A stretch of DNA of 64,000 bases from Pseudomonas silvicola. Its GTDB lineage: Bacteria > Pseudomonadota > Gammaproteobacteria > Pseudomonadales > Pseudomonadaceae. Each line of letters opens with the position of its first letter. The stretch's first letter is position 1. The position numbers and the translations under genes were made by a program. A model generated the notes under the pieces. That model was not told the DNA's origin. It ran no database searches and saw only the letters and a program-made list of their open reading frames with translations. The stretch covers positions 2,458,001 to 2,522,000 of the forward strand of contig NZ_CP093280.1 in NCBI RefSeq assembly GCF_026651855.1, written 5' to 3'. Positions 4,793 to 47,481 of the stretch are shown here, piece after piece.

Positions 4793-5479
4793 ATGCCCTC
4801 GAGTTCTATCCATATCGGTCTCATTCTTTTCCCAAATGTCACCCAGCTTGACTTGACGGGTCCTTCCGAGGTTTTCAGCAGGCTCCCGGGGGCCCATGTG
4901 CACCTGCTCTGGAAGGATCTCGATCCAGTGGTGACTGAGCGCGGCATGCGTATCTTGCCGACCACGCGCTACGACGAGTGTCCGCCGCTGACCGTCATCT
5001 GCGTTCCAGGCGGCTCCGGCCAGATCGAACTCATGAGTGACCAGCAGACACTGAACTTCCTGCGTAAGGTAGCAGCTGGTTGCCAGTTGATAACCTCGGT
5101 TTGCACGGGGTCGCTCATCCTTGGCGCGGCGGGGTTGTTAACGGGGTATAGGGCTACGAGCCATTGGTCTTCCATCGACCAATTGGGGTTGCTGGGGGCT
5201 GAGCCTGTCCATGCGCGAGTGGTGCGTGACCGAGATCGATTGACCGGTGCTGGTGTCACGTCGGGTATCGACTTTGCGTTGAGCGTGGTTGCGTTACTGG
5301 CAGGGGAGGAGGTTGCCCAAAGTATCCAGTTGCAAATGGAATACGATCCTGAACCGCCCTTTCAAGCGGGCTCACCGCGAGTCGCGCCACCAGAGTTGGT
5401 GGCGCGGACCAAAGAAAACATGAGCGCTTTTATCGAGCGCCGAAGGATCGCAACGGTGCAGGCTGCCAATAGAGTGTAG
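4793..5479 (+). CDS. inhA: DJ-1/PfpI-family protein, isonitrile hydratase-like
   Basis: The 228-residue protein matches the P. putida isonitrile hydratase (InhA) pattern along its length: LFPNVTQLDLTGP near residue 12, WKDLDPV near 40, VICVPGGSGQ near 68, and the nucleophile-elbow cysteine in SVCTGSLILGAAGLL (Cys104). InhA hydrates isonitriles to N-substituted formamides. Start 4793 is preceded by GGGAGG; an upstream extension reading back into the tRNA terminator is rejected. The last 21 bases, including the stop codon, form the left end of the 751-bp tandem duplication that follows. The exact substrate is inferred from similarity. Confidence 0.82.
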   Translation: MPSSSIHIGLILFPNVTQLDLTGPSEVFSRLPGAHVHLLWKDLDPVVTERGMRILPTTRYDECPPLTVICVPGGSGQIELMSDQQTLNFLRKVAAGCQLITSVCTGSLILGAAGLLTGYRATSHWSSIDQLGLLGAEPVHARVVRDRDRLTGAGVTSGIDFALSVVALLAGEEVAQSIQLQMEYDPEPPFQAGSPRVAPPELVARTKENMSAFIERRRIATVQAANRV

Positions 5480-6970
5480 CGGGCCGCGTCCCTGGTGGCG
5501 CATGTGCCAGGGATACAGTGCGGGCTACCGACGCGGTCAAGTCCGCTGGCCGAAAGCCCGCCACCATTTGCTACTTGCCGGGCACCAGCGACAGCCGCTT
5601 GCTGCCATAGGTCTTGTCGAAGTTTTGCGGCTGCATCGGGAACGACACGTACTGCCCCTTCAGCCAGGCATCGATGCTGTCGGCATAGTGCGGGCTGGCC
5701 GGGTTGCCCGACTGGCCGGTGCTGTTGAGGCCGATCATCGGTTCGGCCAGCGAGAAGTCGACGATCACGCGCATGGCCGGGATCAACCGGGCATCGAAGT
5801 TCTCGCCCCAGCTGTAGGCCGAGGTGTTGAGGGTGGTGTGGTCGCCGCCCGCCTGGCGCGGTGCCAGCGCAGTGCCCTGGGCGGCCCAGGTGTAGCGGTG
5901 CAGGTTACCCCATTGCCAGGCCTTGTGGTCGCTGCCCAGTTGCTTGTCGCCTTCGGTGACGGCGGCGGCCAGGCTGCGGGCCAGAATGGTGGGTTTGTCC
6001 TCTTTCTGCGGTGTGCGGATGTCGTCCCAGAACGGGCTGTCCTCACGCGCCAGCAAGTGGTCGGCCTGGGCCGAGTACGACAGGTTGCCGGCCGCGACGA
6101 AGGCTTTCCACGATGGGCTGTCCTCCGGGCCCAGCTCGTCGAGGAATATCTGCTTGCTGCTTTCCTGCAGGAATAATTCATACAGGGCCGCATCCGCCGA
6201 CTGTGGTGCCAGGCTGCCAATAGAGTGTAGCGGGCCGCGTCCCTGGTGGCGCATGTGCCAGGGATACAGTGCGGGCTACCGACGCGGTCAAGTCCGCTGG
6301 CCGAAAGCCCGCCACCATTTGCTACTTGCCGGGCACCAGCGACAGCCGCTTGCTGCCATAGGTCTTGTCGAAGTTTTGCGGCTGCATCGGGAACGACACG
6401 TACTGCCCCTTCAGCCAGGCATCGATGCTGTCGGCATAGTGCGGGCTGGCCGGGTTGCCCGACTGGCCGGTGCTGTTGAGGCCGATCATCGGTTCGGCCA
6501 GCGAGAAGTCGACGATCACGCGCATGGCCGGGATCAACCGGGCATCGAAGTTCTCGCCCCAGCTGTAGGCCGAGGTGTTGAGGGTGGTGTGGTCGCCGCC
6601 TGCCTGGCGCGGTGCCAGCGCAGTGCCCTGGGCGGCCCAGGTGTAGCGGTGCAGGTTACCCCATTGCCAGGCCTTGTGGTCGCTGCCCAGTTGCTTGTCG
6701 CCTGCGGTGACGGCGGCGGCCAGGCTGCGGGCGAGAATGGTGGGTTTGTCCTCTTTCTGCGGTGTGCGGATGTCGTCCCAGAACGGGCTGTCCTCACGCG
6801 CCAGCAAGTGGTCGGCCTGGGCCGAGTACGACAGGTTGCCGGCCGCGACGAAGGCTTTCCACGATGGGCTGTCCTCCGGGCCCAGCTCGTCGAGGAATAT
6901 CTGCTTGCTGCTTTCCTGCAGGAATAATTCATACAGGGCCGCATCCGCCGACTGTGGCGCCAGGCTGCCA
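5459..6970. repeat. 751-bp tandem duplication covering the inhA end and quiP 3' end
   Basis: Unit 1 is 5459-6209 and unit 2 is 6210-6960. The ten bases CAGGCTGCCA occur at 5459, 6210 and 6961, exactly 751 apart, marking both ends and the novel joint. This is the signature of duplication by slippage or recombination between a 10-bp microhomology in inhA and one in quiP. I find four differences between units: C5850/T6601, T5953/G6704, C5982/G6733 and T6207/C6958. Confidence 0.95.
5571..6219 (-). pseudogene. Duplicated 3' fragment of quiP
   Basis: This segment repeats quiP from about residue 611 to its stop codon and lacks the signal peptide, the catalytic Ser265 and the promoter. One of its four differences from the intact gene changes Ala to Glu (T5953); the others are synonymous. 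An ATG at 6254 in the duplicated intergenic DNA is in frame and would allow a 227-residue product, but no function can be expected without the nucleophile. It lies directly downstream of intact quiP and could be reached by read-through. Confidence 0.93.
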
Positions 6971-8799
6971 TTGAACGCCAGCAGGCGCGTCAGCGCTTCC
7001 TGGGCTTTGGCGCGGTCGGCGGCCGGTAGGGCGTCGATGGCCTGCTTCAGCGGTTGGGCCATGCCAGGGGCCTGCAACATGGCCTTGAGCTTGGGCGCGA
7101 AGGTGGTGGTCTGGTCGTATTGCATGGCGATCATGCTGCGCGTGTCCTGCTTGCCGGCACCGGCCAGTTGTGCCAGGCGCTCGCTACGCTCCGGGTAGTA
7201 CCAGGAATTGGACAGTTGCATGCCGTAGCCGTGGGGCACGGTGCGTTGGTTGGCCGTGCCCAGCCAGCCTTGCGGCGGGTCCTGGTCATAGGGGTGCAGC
7301 ATGGCGTCGGCGAAACCGTCCCAGTCGTAGCGCCCGTCCCAGCCGGGCGACGGCAGCAGGCCACGGCCTTCGCGGCGGTTGGGGAAGCGGCCGGTCACCT
7401 GCCAGCCGATGTGCTGGGCGTCGGCGAAGATCATGTTGACGGCCAGGGCGCGGATTTCCCGACTGGCATCGGAGGCGGCTTCCACCGACTGCGCCCGGGA
7501 CAGGTCGAACAGTGCGTCCAGGCTCTTGTCGTCCTTCAAGTCCGGGGTTTGCAGGGCCAGGCCCAGGCCGGTGTTCAGCGCCACAGGTTGCAACGGGTTG
7601 CTGCGCTCGCCCAGCACGCTGTTGAGCAGCGGGCCGTGGCGGGTTTCGTAAATGGCCTCGCGCACCGGGCGCTGGCCCTTGATGATGAAAGTTTCCTGGC
7701 GTACCGCCGCTGGCCGCCATTTACCGTCGGCCAGGTATTGCAGCTGGCTGCCCTGGCGCTGGATTTTTTCCAGGAACACATCCTGATTGTCGCCCATGGT
7801 CATGGTCATGCCCCAGGCGACCTTGCCGTTGAAGCCGGTCAGCACGCCGGGAATGCCGGCCAGCGATACGCCCGCGGCCTGGTACTTCGGCGCTCGAATC
7901 TGCACGTAGTTCCACAGCGACGGAATGGCGATGGGCAGGTGGCTGTCGTTGGCGAACAGGCTTCGCCCGTTGCGTGCGTGGTCCGGGCTGATGGCCCAGT
8001 TGTTCGATGCGGCAAGGCCCAGCCCGTTGATCGTTGCCAGTGCGCCGGCCACCTTGTTCAGGTCAGCCAGGCCAGGCACCTGGCCGCTCAGGTTCAAGCC
8101 TTTGAGCTTGTCGGCTTCGTCGAACGGCAGGGGTTCATCGGGGTAGGTGGGCAGCAGCCAGGCCAGCTTGTCGGCACCGACTTTCTGCGCCAGGACCAGC
8201 GAGGCGATTTCTTCCTGCAGGTTCACCGACTGGCCGAAGTTGAACAGGGCGAAGATCAGCGCCGAGTCTTCCGGTTTCCAGTATTCAGGCACGTAGCCAG
8301 CTTCGGCCAGGTCCTGGGGCAGTTTGTCGCGGTAGCGGAACAGGTAGGCGTTGACGCCGCGCGCGTACACCTCGAAGAAGCGTTTGAGGCGCGGTGACGC
8401 GGCGGCGTACAACGCATCGGCGCTTTTCTTCAGGTTCACGGTACGCATGAAGCGGTCGCCATCCAGCGCCTGGGGACCTTGCAGCTCGGCCAGGCGGCCC
8501 TGGGCCAGCAAGCGCAGGGTGACCATCTGGCTGATGCGGTCGCTGGCATTGATGTAGCCCTGGGCGAACAGCGCGTCATGGAAGGTGCTGCTTTCGATCA
8601 GCGGCATGCCATAGGCGTTGCGGCGCACCGAGACGTTCTGGGCCAGCCCCTTGAGCGGCTGTACGCCACTGTCCGGTGGCACGCTGTCGGTGTAACGGCT
8701 TTCGAGCCAGGACTGGCAACCGGTCAGGCTGATCAGCCCGGCCAGGGTCGCGGCGGCGCCGAACCGGGGAATGAAATGTGTGAAGGCTGGCGAGGCCAT
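6322..8799 (-). CDS. quiP: N-acyl-homoserine lactone acylase QuiP (penicillin-amidase family)
   Basis: The 825-residue precursor is collinear with P. aeruginosa QuiP. It begins with a signal peptide ending in a lipobox (LTGC, Cys28). After an alpha-subunit region and a spacer comes the Ntn-hydrolase nucleophile in AASNNWAI (Ser265), which becomes the beta-chain N terminus by autocleavage. [13 protein letters not shown] and [14 protein letters not shown] are further family blocks. QuiP removes the acyl chain from long-chain homoserine lactones in the periplasm, so it can quench or recycle quorum signals. Start 8799 has AGGAG seven bases upstream; a longer frame to 8892 lacks one. Its 3' end lies in unit 2 of the tandem duplication, and the gene is intact. 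Confidence 0.92.
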
Positions 8800-8925
8800 G
8801 GTGAGGCTCCTGCGGGGCTGGCGTGTAAAAGGCGCTACGTTAGTGAGCGCCCGCACGCCACGCAAGCGGGTGGCCGTCTTTATTTGCAGCACGGGACGGC
8901 CGGCGCCTCGGGGCCGCCTGGAAAA

Positions 8926-40241: not shown

Positions 40242-42944
40242 CTAGATGCTCAGGCGCGACAGCTCGACGCCCTGCGCCTGGCTGACACTCAGTTGGTCGA
40301 CGATGGCATCCTGCAGGCGGCTGCACAGTTGCGGGTCGGAAAGCGGGTGGTTATCGGCGTCGGTAATGAAGAATACGTCTTCTACCCGCTCGCCCAGGGT
40401 GGCGATCTTGGCATTTTGCAGCGACAGGTCGAACTCCAGGAAAATCTTGCCGATGCGTGCCAGCAGGCCCGGGCGGTCCGGGGCGCTCAGCTCAAGGATG
40501 GTCACCGGGCGCTGGGCGTCGTTGTGAATGGTGACCTGGGGCGCGAAGGCGAAGTGCTTGAGCTGGCGCGGCACCCGGCGCTGGATGATCGTGGGGTAGT
40601 CATCGGGGTTGCGCAGGGCCTCGGTCAGGCCTTCGCGGATCGCCTTGACCCGCACTGGGTTGTCGCCAATCGAGCCGCCGTCGTTGTCCAGCACGATGTA
40701 GGTGTCGAGGGTGAACTGGCTGCTGGAGGTAATGATGCGTGCGTCATGGATGTTGAGGTTGAGCTGGTCCATGGCGGCCACGGTCACGGCGAAGAAGTCG
40801 TGCTGGTCGGGCGCGTAGATGAAGATCTGGGTCCCGCCCTCGAACTCGCGCTGGGTCGTTTCCTTGATCAGCACCAGCGGCCCGCCGTCCACCGGCTGCT
40901 GCAGGATGGCGTCGCTGTGCCAGGCCACGTCGCCTGCGGTGTGGCGCAGGAAATAGTCATCGCCCAGTTGTGACCACAGTTGCTCGACGTCGTCGGGGTC
41001 GGTGCCGGCGCGCACCAGAATGTCCAGGGCCGCGCTCTGGGTCTGGCGGATCTGCTCTTCGCGGTCCAGCGGGTTCTCCAGGCCGCGGCGCAGGGCGCGC
41101 TTGGTCTCGGTGAACAGTTGGCGCAGCAGGCTGGCGCGCCAGCTGTTCCACAGGCTGGGGTTGGTGGCATTGATATCGGCCACGGTCAACACATAGAGGT
41201 AGTCCAGGTGCGTCTGGTCGCCCACCAGTTGGGCGAAGTCGTGGATGACCTGTGGGTCGGACAAGTCCTTGCGCTGGGCGGTGGTGGACATCACCAGGTG
41301 GTTCTGCACCAGCCAGACGATCAGACGGCTGTCCCACAGGGGCAGCTGGTGGCGTTGGCAGAAAGCCTCGGCGTCGATGGCACCCAGGTCCGAGTGGTCG
41401 CCGTGGCGGCCCTTGCCAATGTCGTGATACAGGCCGGCCAGGTAGATCAGCTCCGGCTTGGGTAACTGGCCCATGAGCTTGCTGGCCAGCGGGAATTTCT
41501 CCGACACCGGCGTGTACTGCAACTTGCGCAGGTGCTTGATCAGGTTCAGCGTGTGGGCGTCCACGGTATAGATATGGAACAGGTCGTGCTGCATCTGCCC
41601 CACGATATGGCCGAATTCGGGCAGGTAGCGCCCCAGAATGCCATAGCGGTTCATGCGCCGCAGGTTGCGGTGAATGCCGATCTCGCACTTGAACAGCTCG
41701 ATGAACAGGCTGGTATTGCGAATGTCATTGCGAAAATCATCGTCGATCAGGTGACGATGTTCGCGCAGCAGGCGAATGGTGTCCGCGCGCACACCCTTGA
41801 TCTCGGGGTTCTGCGCCATCAGCACGAAAATTTCCAGCATGGCGAACGGCGTGCGTTTGAACACGTTGGCATGGGTGGCTTCGATGTAGCCGTCGTGCAA
41901 CTGGAAGCGCGAGTTGATCGGCAGGGTAACGCTGCCCACGTCATCGGCCAGGATCACTTCCTCGAAATGCTGAATGATGAGGTCACTGAGCTCGGCGATG
42001 CTCATCACCACACGGTAGTACTTCTGCATGAAGCGTTCGATGGCCAGCTTCGCGTCGCTGTCCTTGAAGCCCAGCAGCCCGGCGATGCTGCGCTGGTGGT
42101 CGAACAGCAAACGGTCTTCGGCGCGCCCGGCCAGCATGTGCAGGGCGTAGCGCACCTTCCACAGGAACTCCTGGGAGCTGGCCAGCAGGTTGTTCTCGCT
42201 TTCCAGCAGGAAACCCTCGCCGGCCAGCGCGTGCAGGTTCAGGGTGCCATATTGGCGCCGCGCCACCCAGAGGATGGTCTGAATGTCACGCAACCCGCCG
42301 GGTGAGCCCTTGACGTTGGGTTCCAGGTTGTATTCGGTGTCGTTGTACTTGTGGTGCCGGGCTTTCTGCTCGGCGCGCTTGGCCAGAAAGAATTCCTTGC
42401 TGGGCCACATGTTCGCGGTGCTGGTGACTTCCAGCATGCGCTTGCGCAGGCGCTCGGGGCCGGCCACGGTGCGGCTTTCCATCAGGTTGGTGATGATGGT
42501 CAGGTCACCGCGGGCCTGCTCGGCGCACTCTTCGATGGAGCGCACGCTCTGGCCCACTTCCAGGCCGATGTCCCACAGCAGGGTGAGAAAGCGCTCGATG
42601 GAATCGCGGAACGTCTCATGGTCCGAGCTTTCCAGCAGGATCAGCAGGTCGATGTCGGAGTAGGGGTGCAGTTCGCCACGCCCGTAGCCGCCCACCGCCA
42701 CCAGGGCGATATCGGCCTCTTCGCTCCAGTCGAACTGGTTCCAGGCCTGCTGCAGGATATTATCGACGAACCAGGCGCGGTCCTCGATCAGCCGCCGAAT
42801 GTCCCGGCCGCTGCGAAACCGCCCGTCCAGTACCTCGCGGGCCTGGCGAATGGCTTTCTTGAAGGCGGCGATGGGGCTCGCCTTGAGGGCCAGTTCCGCC
42901 TGGAACTGACCGCGATCGAACAACTCCGGATCCACCTGGGGCAT
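40242..42944 (-). CDS. glnD: Bifunctional PII uridylyl-transferase/removing enzyme GlnD (intact copy)
   Basis: The 900-residue protein has the nucleotidyltransferase motif [17 protein letters not shown] (residues 85-101), the HD domain with [14 protein letters not shown] (about 500-515), and two C-terminal ACT domains starting near 700 and 815 ([19 protein letters not shown] in the second). GlnD uridylylates PII when glutamine is low and reverses it when high; the ACT domains sense glutamine. AGGAAGG eight bases before ATG 42944 gives the start. The 5' part, from codon 648 up to the start, plus its leader is repeated at 43.4-45.8 kb. Confidence 0.96.
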
Positions 42945-43008
42945 CGAATAGGCCTTCCTGAACTGTGTTGGGGGTGAGGCTGTTCTTGGCTGTGGCTTTG
43001 TGGTGAGG

Positions 43009-43184
43009 CCTTCCCGGGCAAACCCGGTCCCACACCTTTCGGACCTTGGGTGTCAATCATGCAAAGCTCTTGGCCCTTGGTAGCCCGCAGGTCTTACCCT
43101 GGTGCGCCCAGAGGCTAAGTGCTTTGCCTTCCTGGCACCACTGCCGCGAAGGGTATGGGACCGAGCTTGCTCGGGAAAGTCCCA
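43009..43184. repeat. Inverted REP-like arms upstream of glnD
   Basis: TTCCCGGGCAAACCCGGTCCCAC (43011-43034, first arm) and GGGACCGAGCTTGCTCGGGAAA (43157-43178, second arm) are members of the family seen at 2.9 kb. The pair spans most of the 256-base gap before glnD. The same pair is repeated at 45422-45597 by the tandem duplication. Confidence 0.6.
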
Positions 43185-43200
43185 CCACCTCGATCAAGCC

Positions 43201-45357
43201 CTACGCCGAAACGCGTGGGATGGTATCGTCCGCCCGCAAGGTGAAGATCTCATAGCCAGTAGCAGTGACCACCAGGGTGTGTTCCCACTGGGCCGACAGC
43301 TTGCGGTCCTTGGTGATGGCCGTCCAGCCGTCGCCCAGCACCTTGGTGTCGGCCTTGCCCTGGTTGATCATCGGCTCGATGGTGAAGGTCATGCCTTCCT
43401 TCAACTCCATCCCGGTGCCGGCGCGCACCAGAATGTCCAGGGCCGCGCTCTGGGTCTGGCGGATCTGCTCTTCGCGGTCCAGCGGGTTCTCCAGGCCGCG
43501 GCGCAGGGCGCGCTTGGTCTCGGTGAACAGTTGGCGCAGCAGGCTGGCGCGCCAGCTGTTCCACAGGCTGGGGTTGGTGGCATTGATATCGGCCACGGTC
43601 AACACGTAGAGGTAGTCCAGGTGCGTCTGGTCGCCCACCAGTTGGGCGAAGTCATGGATGACCTGTGGGTCGGACAAGTCCTTGCGCTGGGCGGTGGTGG
43701 ACATCACCAGGTGGTTCTGCACCAGCCAGACGATCAGGCGGCTGTCCCACAGGGGCAACTGGTGGCGTTGGCAGAAAGCCTCGGCGTCGATGGCACCCAG
43801 GTCCGAGTGGTCGCCGTGGCGGCCCTTGCCAATGTCGTGATACAGGCCGGCCAGGTAGATCAGCTCCGGCTTGGGTAACTGGCCCATGAGCTTGCTGGCC
43901 AGCGGGAATTTCTCCGACACCGGCGTGTACTGCAACTTGCGCAGGTGCTTGATCAGGTTCAGCGTGTGGGCGTCCACGGTATAGATATGGAACAGGTCGT
44001 GCTGCATCTGCCCCACGATATGGCCGAATTCGGGCAGGTAGCGCCCCAGAATGCCATAGCGGTTCATGCGCCGCAGGTTGCGGTGAATGCCGATCTCGCA
44101 CTTGAACAGCTCGATGAACAGGCTGGTATTGCGAATGTCATTGCGAAAATCATCGTCGATCAGGTGACGATGTTCGCGCAGCAGGCGAATGGTGTCCGCG
44201 CGCACACCCTTGATCTCGGGGTTCTGCGCCATCAGCACGAAAATTTCCAGCATGGCGAACGGCGTGCGTTTGAACACGTTGGCATGGGTGGCTTCGATGT
44301 AGCCGTCGTGCAACTGGAAGCGCGAGTTGATCGGCAGGGTAACGCTGCCCACGTCATCGGCCAGGATCACTTCCTCGAAATGCTGAATGATGAGGTCACT
44401 GAGCTCGGCGATGCTCATCACCACACGGTAGTACTTCTGCATGAAGCGTTCGATGGCCAGCTTCGCGTCGCTGTCCTTGAAGCCCAGCAGCCCGGCGATG
44501 CTGCGCTGGTGGTCGAACAGCAAACGGTCTTCGGCGCGCCCGGCCAGCATGTGCAGGGCGTAGCGCACCTTCCACAGGAACTCCTGGGAGCTGGCCAGCA
44601 GGTTGTTCTCGCTTTCCAGCAGGAAACCCTCGCCGGCCAGCGCGTGCAGGTTCAGGGTGCCATATTGGCGCCGCGCCACCCAGAGGATGGTCTGAATGTC
44701 ACGCAACCCGCCGGGTGAGCCCTTGACGTTGGGTTCCAGGTTGTATTCGGTGTCGTTGTACTTGTGGTGCCGGGCTTTCTGCTCGGCGCGCTTGGCCAGA
44801 AAGAATTCCTTGCTGGGCCACATGTTCGCGGTGCTGGTGACTTCCAGCATGCGCTTGCGCAGGCGCTCGGGGCCGGCCACGGTGCGGCTTTCCATCAGGT
44901 TGGTGATGATGGTCAGGTCACCGCGGGCCTGCTCGGCGCACTCTTCGATGGAGCGCACGCTCTGGCCCACTTCCAGGCCGATGTCCCACAGCAGGGTGAG
45001 AAAGCGCTCGATGGAATCGCGGAACGTCTCATGGTCCGAGCTTTCCAGCAGGATCAGCAGGTCGATGTCGGAGTAGGGGTGCAGTTCGCCACGCCCGTAG
45101 CCGCCCACCGCCACCAGGGCGATATCGGCCTCTTCGCTCCAGTCGAACTGGTTCCAGGCCTGCTGCAGGATATTATCGACGAACCAGGCGCGGTCCTCGA
45201 TCAGCCGCCGAATGTCCCGGCCGCTGCGAAACCGCCCGTCCAGTACCTCGCGGGCCTGGCGAATGGCTTTCTTGAAGGCGGCGATGGGGCTCGCCTTGAG
45301 GGCCAGTTCCGCCTGGAACTGACCGCGATCGAACAACTCCGGATCCACCTGGGGCAT
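43201..45357 (-). CDS. In-frame GlnD (1-648)-Map (191-260) chimera
   Basis: The 718-residue open frame uses the glnD start and ribosome-binding site duplicated with it. Residues 1-648 equal GlnD, retaining the nucleotidyltransferase motif and the HD motif; both ACT domains are lost. At ...VRAGT the frame passes into Map residue 191 ([10 protein letters not shown]) and ends at the authentic map C terminus (TIPRVSA). The joint lies in the 13-bp repeat. The Map part holds two of the metal ligands (TIEPM, WEHTL) but not the rest. All four glnD-part and one map-part differences from the parents are synonymous. By family knowledge such a GlnD could uridylylate PII without sensing glutamine; expression is not shown. 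Confidence 0.85.
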
Positions 45358-45421
45358 CGAATAGGCCTTCCTGAACTGTGTTGGGGGTGAGGCTGTTCTT
45401 GGCTGTGGCTTTGTGGTGAGG

Positions 45422-45597
45422 CCTTCCCGGGCAAACCCGGTCCCACACCTTTCGGGCCTTGGGTGTCAATCATGCAAAGCTCTTGGCCCTTGGTAGCCCG
45501 CAGGTCTTACCCTGGTGCGCCCAGAGGCTAAGTGCTTTGCCTTCCTGGCACCACTGCCGCGAAGGGTATGGGACCGAGCTTGCTCGGGAAAGTCCCA
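45422..45597. repeat. Second copy of the REP-like arms, upstream of the chimera
   Basis: Duplicate of the elements at 43009-43184, differing at A43043/G45456 only. It lies in the gap between map and the chimera. Confidence 0.6.
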
Positions 45598-45613
45598 CCA
45601 CCTCAATCAAGCC

Positions 45614-46396
45614 CTACGCCGAAACGCGTGGGATGGTATCGTCCGCCCGCAGGGTGAAGATCTCATAGCCAGTAGCAGTGACCACCAGGGTGTGTTCCCA
45701 CTGGGCCGACAGCTTGCGGTCCTTGGTGATGGCCGTCCAGCCGTCGCCCAGCACCTTGGTGTCGGCCTTGCCCTGGTTGATCATCGGCTCGATGGTGAAG
45801 GTCATGCCTTCCTTCAACTCCATCCCGGTGCCGGCGCGGCCGTAGTGCAGGATCTGTGGCTCTTCGTGGAAGACCTTGCCGATGCCGTGGCCGCAGAATT
45901 CGCGCACCACCGAGAAACCATTCTTTTCCGCGTGCTTCTGGATGACTTCGCCGATGTCGCCCAGGCGGCAGCCCGGCTTCACCAGTTCAATGGCCTTGTA
46001 CAGGCATTCCTGGGTCACCTTGGACAGGCGCTCGGCCCAGGCCGGCACGGTGCCCACGTGGAACATGCGGCTGGTGTCGCCGTGGTAGCCATCCTTGATG
46101 ACCGTGACGTCGATGTTCAGGGTGTCGCCGTCCTTCAGAACCTTGTCGCCGGGAATGCCGTGGCACACCACGTGATTGATGGAGGTGCAGATCGACTTGG
46201 GGAAACCCTTGTAGTTCAGCGGCGCGGGGATGGCCTTCTGTTCATTGACGATGAAGTCATGGCACAGACGGTCCAGTTCCTCGGTGGTCACGCCGGGCTT
46301 GACGTGCGGTTCGATCATTTCCAGCACTTGCGCGGCCAGGCGGCCGGCAACGCGCATGTGCTCGATGTCCTCGGGGGTTTTGATGGTGACGGTCAT
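45614..46396 (-). CDS. map: Methionine aminopeptidase type I (intact)
   Basis: The 260-residue enzyme has metal ligands in the family order: DVTVIKDGYHGDTSR (Asp97 and Asp108 region), FCGHGIGKVFHEEP near residue 168 (His171), TIEPM (Glu204) and [11 protein letters not shown] (Glu235). CTSINHVVCHGIP near 70 has the substrate-binding His. It removes initiator methionine. It diverges from rpsB across 344 bases and leads the operon map-(chimera)-glnD-dapC. Its 3' 220 bases are copied at 43201-43425. Confidence 0.96.
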   Translation of the reverse strand: MTVTIKTPEDIEHMRVAGRLAAQVLEMIEPHVKPGVTTEELDRLCHDFIVNEQKAIPAPLNYKGFPKSICTSINHVVCHGIPGDKVLKDGDTLNIDVTVIKDGYHGDTSRMFHVGTVPAWAERLSKVTQECLYKAIELVKPGCRLGDIGEVIQKHAEKNGFSVVREFCGHGIGKVFHEEPQILHYGRAGTGMELKEGMTFTIEPMINQGKADTKVLGDGWTAITKDRKLSAQWEHTLVVTATGYEIFTLRADDTIPRVSA

Positions 46397-46740
46397 ACAG
46401 GCTCTCTCGGCGCTTCACGGCGCAGGCAAACACGAAATGAAACGATTCTACCAGACGACCGGCAGCCGGAACTGTCGCCAGGCATCGCTTCTCTATATAG
46501 AGTTGATAGGGCCATTGTTGCGCGAATCAAGCCCGCACGCAAAAGTCGTTGATCGACAACGTGAATTCGGGTTTCGCTGGCAAAGGTTCTGTGGTATAAA
46601 ATGCGCCGCTTTCCGGGGATAGCCCCGAAAGCACCAAACCCACACACGTATCGGCACGATGACCTGGGTGCCTTCAGCTCAAGCTGCTGGTTGGTCATTG
46701 GGGTACGTGGAGGCCTAACCCGACTTATCAAGGAACTATC
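46397..46740 (+). promoter_or_regulatory. rpsB promoter and leader, S2 autoregulation region
   Basis: The gap between map and rpsB is 344 bases. A -10 of TATAAA lies at 46595-46600; the -35 is weak. The leader starts with a CGGGG-ATAG-CCCCG hairpin (46613-46626) and ends with GGGGTACGTGGAGGCCTAACCC before the start codon; the GTACGTGGAGG block resembles the rpsB leader of other gammaproteobacteria, where S2 represses its own translation. The rest (46397-46590) holds no gene that I recognise, only the short leader of map. Confidence 0.65.
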
Positions 46741-47481
46741 ATGTCCCAAGTCAATATGCGCGATATGCTGAAGGCCGGTGTGCACTTCGGCCACCAGACC
46801 CGTTACTGGAACCCGAAAATGGGCAAGTACATTTTCGGCGCGCGCAACAAGATTCACATCATCAACCTGGAAAAAACCCTGCCAATGTTCAACGACGCTC
46901 TGACGTTCGTAGAGCGCCTGGCTCAGGGCAAGAACAAGATCCTGTTCGTCGGCACCAAGCGTTCGGCTGGCAAGATCGTTGCTGAAGAAGCAGCACGTTG
47001 CGGTTCGCCGTACGTCGACCACCGCTGGTTGGGCGGCATGCTGACCAACTTCAAAACCATCCGTGCTTCGATCAAGCGTCTGCGCGACCTGGAAACCCAG
47101 GCCGAAGATGGCACCTTCGCCAAGCTGACCAAGAAAGAAGCCCTGATGCGCACCCGTGATCTGGAAAAACTGGATCGCTCCCTGGGTGGTATCAAGGACA
47201 TGGGCGGTCTGCCTGACGCACTGTTCGTCATCGACGTTGATCACGAGCGCATCGCGATCACCGAAGCCAACAAGCTGGGTATCCCGGTCATCGGCGTAGT
47301 CGATACCAACTCCAGCCCAGAAGGCGTTGACTACATCATCCCAGGCAACGATGACGCCATCCGCGCTATCCAGCTGTACATGGGTTCGATGGCTGATGCC
47401 GTTATCCGTGGCCGCAACCACGTTGCTGGCGGTACCGAAGAGTACGTCCAGGACGCACCTGCTGCAGCGGTAGAAGGCTGA
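46741..47481 (+). CDS. rpsB: 30S ribosomal protein S2
   Basis: The 246-residue protein matches S2 from [20 protein letters not shown] to the C terminus, with [33 protein letters not shown] and [20 protein letters not shown]. It is a 30S component required for S1 binding. AAGGAA precedes the start. A strong terminator-like hairpin separates it from tsf, a known attenuation arrangement. Confidence 0.98.

What the first reader, a model, noticed from the sequence alone, without database searches (positions are those of the whole stretch)
43201..45357. Tandem duplication has created an in-frame GlnD-Map chimera lacking the glutamine-sensing ACT domains
The duplicated glnD 5' part reads without interruption into the duplicated map tail: 718 residues, GlnD 1-648 plus Map 191-260. 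It keeps the start codon, ribosome-binding site, nucleotidyltransferase and HD motifs of GlnD, and the intact map and glnD remain on either side. Five coding differences from the parental copies are all synonymous. If expressed it could uridylylate PII without sensing glutamine, shifting nitrogen control.
Basis: partly seen in the sequence, partly recalled or inferred. Interest (0 to 1): 0.85.

Follow-up and report, generated by a model that had tools for sequence, protein, structure and literature searches.

The report
GlnD–Map fusion from tandem duplication
In this Pseudomonas assembly a short stretch of DNA has been copied in place, leaving two genes whole and adding a hybrid of both between them; it is probably a by-product of a copying accident of a kind seen several times in this genome, not a new nitrogen switch.

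Summary
A 2,413-bp direct tandem duplication (41000-43412, 43413-45825; 7 transitions apart) leaves map and glnD intact and creates an in-frame 718-aa ORF, GlnD 1-648 + Map 191-260. The joint lies on a 13-nt repeat shared by glnD and map, as in short-homology duplications verified in Salmonella. The joint was found in 0 of 397 other Pseudomonas genomes; 102 of 102 compared loci have one glnD and one map.

Two things change the reading. First, it is not alone: seven such duplications occur in 1.664 Mb sampled, and five of six joints with both ends in same-strand genes are in frame. Short repeats between neighbouring genes here are in the same frame in 71-91% of cases, so an open frame is expected. 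Most likely a near-neutral by-product. Read-level proof is lacking and the assembly is flagged 8% contaminated.

The parts
45614..46396 (-). intact map (methionine aminopeptidase, 260 aa)
   Evidence: ORF; Pfam Peptidase_M24 over 12-241, profile 1-208 of 208
43201..45357 (-). chimeric ORF, GlnD 1-648 + Map 191-260, 718 aa
   Evidence: Pfam NT, GlnD_UR_UTase, HD, fragment of M24, no ACT
40242..42944 (-). intact glnD (900 aa)
   Evidence: ORF; NT, GlnD_UR_UTase, HD and ACT by Pfam
41000..43412 (.). tandem copy A of the 2,413-bp unit (glnD 5' part, intergenic region, map tail)
43413..45825 (.). tandem copy B of the 2,413-bp unit
43413..43425 (.). 13-nt homology at the joint; parental sites at 41000-41012 and 45826-45838
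45366..45372 (-). ribosome-binding site AGGAAGG of the chimera (same bases before intact glnD)
   Evidence: sequence read by eye; copy identity
45358..45613 (-). 256-nt map-chimera intergenic region with two hairpins that resemble REP elements (one at 45570-45596)
   Evidence: the name REP is recalled; similar stretches occur elsewhere in the genome
42945..43200 (-). second copy of the intergenic region, before intact glnD (hairpin at 43157-43183)
44938..45150 (-). nucleotidyltransferase domain of the chimera (residues 70-140)
   Evidence: PF01909
43678..43896 (-). HD domain of the chimera (residues 488-560)
   Evidence: PF01966

Best explanation
A recent chromosomal accident: a 2.4-kb direct tandem duplication formed between two 13-nt direct repeats, one in glnD and one in map (both encode RAGT in the same frame), by short-homology exchange or template slippage. 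The parents stay whole and the hybrid gene falls between them, in frame because the repeat encodes the same residues in both genes. It belongs to a set of similar duplications on this chromosome. If translated, it would be a GlnD lacking ACT domains, with a folded catalytic body and an unfolded Map tail. Its most likely residual activity is weak, glutamine-blind removal of uridylyl groups from PII, largely overridden by intact GlnD, and it may well be degraded. Shown: duplication, joint, frame, domains, absence from the relatives searched, other duplications. Inferred: mechanism of formation, expression, activity, near-neutrality.
For: Tandem copies and 13-nt joint; 22 of 400,000 random joints share >=10 nt. 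Seven two-copy tandem duplications in 1.664 Mb of this genome, exact joint homologies 10, 13, 0, 15, 1, 14, 17 nt. In Salmonella 5 of 8 tested spontaneous duplications were verified, at joints of 11, 13, 14, 16 and 27 bp (PMC3411829, passages). No such duplication in 0.8 Mb of two other genomes or in 80 named loci, 1.295 Mb. Joint in 0 of 397 other Pseudomonas genomes and 0 stretches of genome contigs. In-frame share of short repeats between different same-strand genes 0.5-3 kb apart: 1295 of 1823 (>=10 nt), 215 of 282 (>=12), 39 of 43 (>=14). Domain content. Model: 503 of 718 residues at pLDDT >=70, but 597-657 and 659-718 below 50.
Against: Five of 5 coding differences are synonymous (chance 0.006 if every change were a free transition in the chimera), which could mean constraint on the hybrid; but two of the five are changes in the intact parents. 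The differences cluster near both ends of the unit (1,698-bp gap, P 0.0013), which needs gene conversion, imported tracts or strain mixing, not simple drift. Persistence long enough to gain 7 differences is odd for a neutral tandem repeat in a strain with intact RecA and RecB. Two of the seven duplications have joints with 0-1 nt exact homology, so not all fit one mechanism.
Confidence: 0.65

Rival explanations
1. Assembly artefact: false duplication from mixed strains, chimeric reads or amplification, so that no cell carries the joint.
For: The assembly is flagged 8.04% contaminated. Its 953-kb contig C2 has lower G+C (0.49-0.54 in the 60 kb read, against 0.62-0.63 in the 364 kb of C1 measured), and the first 20 kb of C2 match Pantoea megaplasmids best, at 77-81% over at most 36% of the query. 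Several duplications of one kind in one assembly are suspicious. The 7 differences are clustered, as between two haplotypes. Two of seven joints lack exact homology.
Against: Unmerged contig overlaps would be joined without homology, but 5 of 7 joints share 10-17 nt (15 nt for the 2,826-bp one). The overlaps vary, unlike a fixed word length. C1 is one 7.6-Mb contig with no N in the 364 kb of it that were checked. Copy divergence runs from 0 to 1%, as for events of different age. Only one rpsB family match in the genome, so no second chromosome copy near this locus.
Confidence: 0.2
2. One reading: the chimera is an active glutamine-blind uridylyltransferase that shifts nitrogen control towards the starved state.
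For: NT domain intact; start codon and ribosome-binding site kept.
Against: HD domain equally intact. ACT deletion is reported to lower uridylyltransferase strongly and leave uridylyl-removing activity (Zhang 2010, recalled, not held). Tail not predicted to fold. Intact GlnD present.
Confidence: 0.05
3. Selected dominant uridylyl-remover: the chimera keeps PII less modified whatever the glutamine level, and is kept because it dampens the nitrogen-starvation response.
For: HD domain present and most of the catalytic body confidently modelled; all five coding differences synonymous.
Against: Found only in this genome among those searched. At the two sites that can be polarised the changes are in the parents. 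An in-frame state needs no selection.
Confidence: 0.1

Closest known systems
Spontaneous short-homology duplications in Salmonella enterica LT2 (PMC3411829; abstract and passages seen)
   Same: direct repeats of 11-27 bp at verified duplication joints; the joint here shares 13 nt
   Different: theirs were classed as duplications at split distances over 5 kb and were unfixed in the population; here 0.57-2.8 kb and in the assembled chromosome
GlnD variants with ACT domains deleted (Zhang et al. 2010, recalled; cited by name in PMC4285133, passages seen; PMC3480911 gives the same domain assignment, passages seen)
   Same: NT and HD domains kept, ACT domains lost
   Different: here natural, with a Map tail, beside an intact glnD; no activity measured
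Tandem duplication that activates a horizontally transferred gene (PMC11111574; search listing only)
   Same: tandem duplication making a new joint
   Different: no sign here of selection or of a new promoter
165-kb direct tandem duplication in Pseudomonas syringae DC3000 (PMC3916326; search listing only)
   Same: direct tandem duplication in a Pseudomonas chromosome
   Different: about 70 times larger; whether it makes a chimeric gene was not looked up

Membership tests
GlnD, PII uridylyltransferase/uridylyl-removing enzyme | N-terminal nucleotidyltransferase domain | tested here: met
   PF01909 at 70-140, PF08335 at 185-322
GlnD, PII uridylyltransferase/uridylyl-removing enzyme | central HD domain | tested here: met
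   PF01966 at 488-560
GlnD, PII uridylyltransferase/uridylyl-removing enzyme | C-terminal ACT domains (glutamine sensing) | tested here: not met
   no ACT in the chimera; ACT at 815-864 in intact GlnD, where Pfam reports one of the two
GlnD, PII uridylyltransferase/uridylyl-removing enzyme | modifies and demodifies PII under glutamine control | not testable with these tools
   needs purified protein
Methionine aminopeptidase | complete M24 catalytic fold | tested here: not met
   only profile positions 171-208 of 208; this stretch is not predicted to fold
Short-homology tandem duplication | two direct, adjacent, near-identical copies | tested here: met
   2,413-bp period, 99.71%
Short-homology tandem duplication | short direct repeat at both ancestral end points and at the joint | tested here: met
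   13 nt at 41000, 43413, 45826
Short-homology tandem duplication | absent from close relatives | tested here: met
   three nearest genomes (93-94% DNA) each have one glnD and one map; joint pattern in 0 of 397
Short-homology tandem duplication | forms without RecA | not testable with these tools
   inferred from the short homology; recA itself is intact

The most novel reading that the evidence does not exclude
This Pseudomonas lineage is a natural chimera-maker. Short-homology tandem duplications of 0.6-2.8 kb accumulate at about 4 per Mb, and because codon bias puts short repeats of neighbouring genes in the same frame, most of them yield open hybrid genes while keeping both parents. GlnD-Map is one of four between-gene hybrids seen in 1.664 Mb (with HutG-HutF, ClpV-TssF and ABC ATPase-kinase).
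Probability: 0.4. Interest if true: 0.65.

Novelty: new member of a known kind. Interest (0 to 1): 0.42.

Why it matters
As a single case it shows how one short repeat shared by two neighbouring genes can create an in-frame hybrid while both parents stay whole. The wider point, if reads confirm it, is testable in any codon-biased genome: frame agreement of short repeats makes duplication-born chimeras open by default. That would give a simple null model against which claims of selected gene fusions in bacteria can be judged.

Tried and rejected
Selection for the open frame: 5 of 6 joints with both ends in same-strand genes are in frame, P 0.018 against one third, but 0.56 against the 76% measured for short repeats >=12 nt. 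Rejected as evidence of selection. One of the five in-frame joints (HutG-HutF) has no exact homology, so the repeat-frame argument does not cover it.

Synonymous differences as proof of a functional chimera: rejected, because at the two polarisable sites (glnD codon 540, map codon 249) the intact gene carries the base that differs from all three nearest sisters; of the other five sites three vary among those sisters, one is covered in only one of them and one in none.

Broken repair genes as the cause: RecA, RecJ, MutS and RecB each have one full-length open copy. RecF, RecO, RuvABC, SbcB and SbcCD were not tested.

A third copy of the unit elsewhere in the genome: none among the 42 matches listed, 40 of 196 first-look candidates being scored. 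Strain name through its plasmids: no close record. A sigma-70 promoter for glnD or the chimera: none in 42900-46800 (0 found, 1.0 expected by chance); so expression may depend on reading from map, which is inference. The first joint-homology values were BLAST overlaps; one search corrected the 713- and 751-bp (C1:517208) units to 1 and 0 nt and the window's 751-bp unit to 10; its script could not extend the 2,826-bp unit through its divergent ends, so 15 nt rests.

Limits. In one search only 90 of the 397 other genomes had two candidates scored, by my count of the rows, so a second glnD copy is well excluded only there; the joint pattern covers all 397 but would miss a changed joint. The duplication class was defined after seeing the data: 19 repeat clusters were listed for the own genome and 7 were two-copy, contiguous and >=500 bp; arrays of more copies and dispersed repeats were left out. 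Controls were not free of repeats: three clusters at about 95% in G292 (an array at 91-93%), three self-hits of 169-198 bp at 92-94% in the named loci. Against G292 and G344 alone the excess is P 0.064, with the named loci 0.003, and many named loci are probably short-read drafts, which collapse such repeats. The CDS for one search were crude long ORFs, from four of the nine own stretches (1.164 of 1.664 Mb). In the alignment behind the structure model the GlnD rows run past the joint, so confidence around the joint is uncertain.

Full report
WHAT IS THERE. On the minus strand the order is map (46396-45614), chimera (45357-43201), glnD (42944-40242). Comparing the window with itself at an offset of 2,413 bases gives a match from 41000 to 43425 with seven mismatches, all transitions. 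The two units are 41000-43412 and 43413-45825. The joint and both parental end points carry the same 13 bases, CGGTGCCGGCGCG. In glnD and in map these bases encode the same residues (RAGT) in the same frame, so the hybrid is open. Its 718 residues are GlnD 1-648 and Map 191-260 exactly, and the five coding differences are synonymous. The chimera keeps the glnD ribosome-binding site and the NT, GlnD_UR_UTase and HD domains, and has no ACT domain; the Map part is only profile positions 171-208 of 208. Intact glnD keeps a second copy of the full 256-nt intergenic region in front of it.

IS IT SPECIAL TO THIS GENOME. The window lies in a 7.61-Mb contig of an 8.65-Mb, three-contig assembly; the 80 best named glnD relatives are all Pseudomonas. 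The joint, as a codon-degenerate pattern, occurs in 1 of 398 genus genomes, this one, and in no stretch of genome contigs, from which the own record may have been left out. A DNA search found two glnD 5' parts only in the own genome; of the other 397 genomes 396 gave one match and one gave none, with the limit on scored candidates stated under Tried and rejected. The three nearest genomes are 93-94% identical in DNA. All 102 loci checked (80 named, 22 unnamed) have one glnD and one map, 17-136 nt apart; here the spacer is 256 nt, with hairpins that resemble REP elements (name recalled).

THE GENOME-WIDE CONTEXT. Self-comparison of 1.664 Mb of this genome (and the window) found 19 repeat clusters, seven of them two-copy contiguous duplications of 0.57-2.8 kb at 99.0-100%. 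With corrected periods the units are 751 (window 5459), 2413, 751 (C1:517208), 2826, 713, 905 and 567 bp, with exact joint homologies of 10, 13, 0, 15, 1, 14 and 17 nt (15). Stretches of two control genomes, 0.8 Mb, had none of this class; 80 named loci, 1.295 Mb, had none. The excess is P 0.064 against the first control and 0.003 with both. Six of the seven joints have both ends in same-strand genes. Five are in frame: GlnD-Map, HutG-HutF, ClpV-TssF, ABC ATPase-kinase, and an internal 189-residue repeat in a 1,197-residue ORF. One, between TssL (DotU) and TssK (VasE), is out of frame. The families are from Pfam; the names HutG, HutF, ClpV, TssK and TssL are recalled.

WHY THE FRAME IS OPEN. 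In 1.164 Mb, exact repeats 0.5-3 kb apart in different same-strand genes are in the same frame in 1295 of 1823 cases at >=10 nt, 215 of 282 at >=12 nt and 39 of 43 at >=14 nt. Codon bias in a G+C-rich genome is the likely reason (inference). A short-homology duplication between two genes is therefore expected to give an open hybrid. The in-frame record (5 of 6) is unusual against one third (P 0.018) but ordinary against 76% (P 0.56).

REAL OR ARTEFACT. Against artefact: homology at five of seven joints of a length that 22 of 400,000 random joints reach, varying overlap lengths, copy divergence from 0 to 1%, and a single rpsB family match. For artefact: contamination of 8.04%, a second large contig of different composition whose first 20 kb match Pantoea megaplasmids best, two joints without exact homology, and no reads to look at. 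The seven glnD-map differences are clustered at both ends, 1,698 bases apart in the middle (P 0.0013). Gene conversion between the copies, imported tracts or mixed strains could each do this. I put artefact at 0.2.

HOW IT WOULD WORK. GlnD's uridylyltransferase lies in the NT domain and its uridylyl-removing activity in the HD domain (PMC4285133 and PMC3480911, passages). The ACT domains are held to sense glutamine (PMC3173338 and PMC12702975, passages). From recall, the dissection by Zhang et al. 2010 found that without ACT domains uridylyl removal persists but no longer responds to glutamine, while uridylyltransferase falls sharply; the paper is not held. In a model of the chimera 503 of 718 residues reach pLDDT 70, most of them in the catalytic body (1-596), while 597-657 and 659-718, Map tail included, are below 50. 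The alignment behind it was shallow (34 rows) and imperfect at the joint, and no intact GlnD or Map was modelled as a control. The expected effect, if any, is weak, glutamine-blind demodification of PII beside a working GlnD.

VERDICT. The event is a new member of a known kind, short-homology tandem duplication with a chimeric gene. Its function is most likely none or slight. The frequency of such events in this genome, and the frame rule behind them, are the more interesting lead, pending reads.

Noticed in passing
window 5459-6970: A second tandem duplication in the window: 751 bp, 10-nt joint, 99.5% identical, copying the 3' end of an 856-aa ORF (6322-8892, minus; penicillin-acylase-like, name recalled).
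   Followed up: partly
L151:581-5089 (C1:680581-685089): A 1,502-aa ORF with about 4.8 in-frame copies of an 843-bp unit, 99.8% identical; Pfam finds five ABC_tran stretches in it. It resembles an ABC-F protein (name recalled) expanded by internal duplication.
   Followed up: partly
L156 and L157 (C1:791654-816685): Three tandem duplications within about 25 kb, two of them in type VI secretion genes (ClpV-TssF, TssL-TssK joints) and one beside them (ABC ATPase-kinase).
   Followed up: partly
L127 (C1:2576912-2581432): A 1,972-bp direct repeat, 99.8% identical, copies 577 bp apart; it includes the 3' end of a ruvA-like ORF, with a yebC-like start nearby (names recalled from the sequence).
   Followed up: no
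L136 (C2:1-20000): Contig C2 (952,764 bp, G+C 0.49-0.54 in the 60 kb read) matches Pantoea megaplasmids best, at 77-81% over at most 36% of its first 20 kb: possibly a foreign replicon in the assembly.
   Followed up: partly
L178 (C1:5327328-5329397): An array of about 17.7 copies of a 117-bp unit at 99.8% identity.
   Followed up: no
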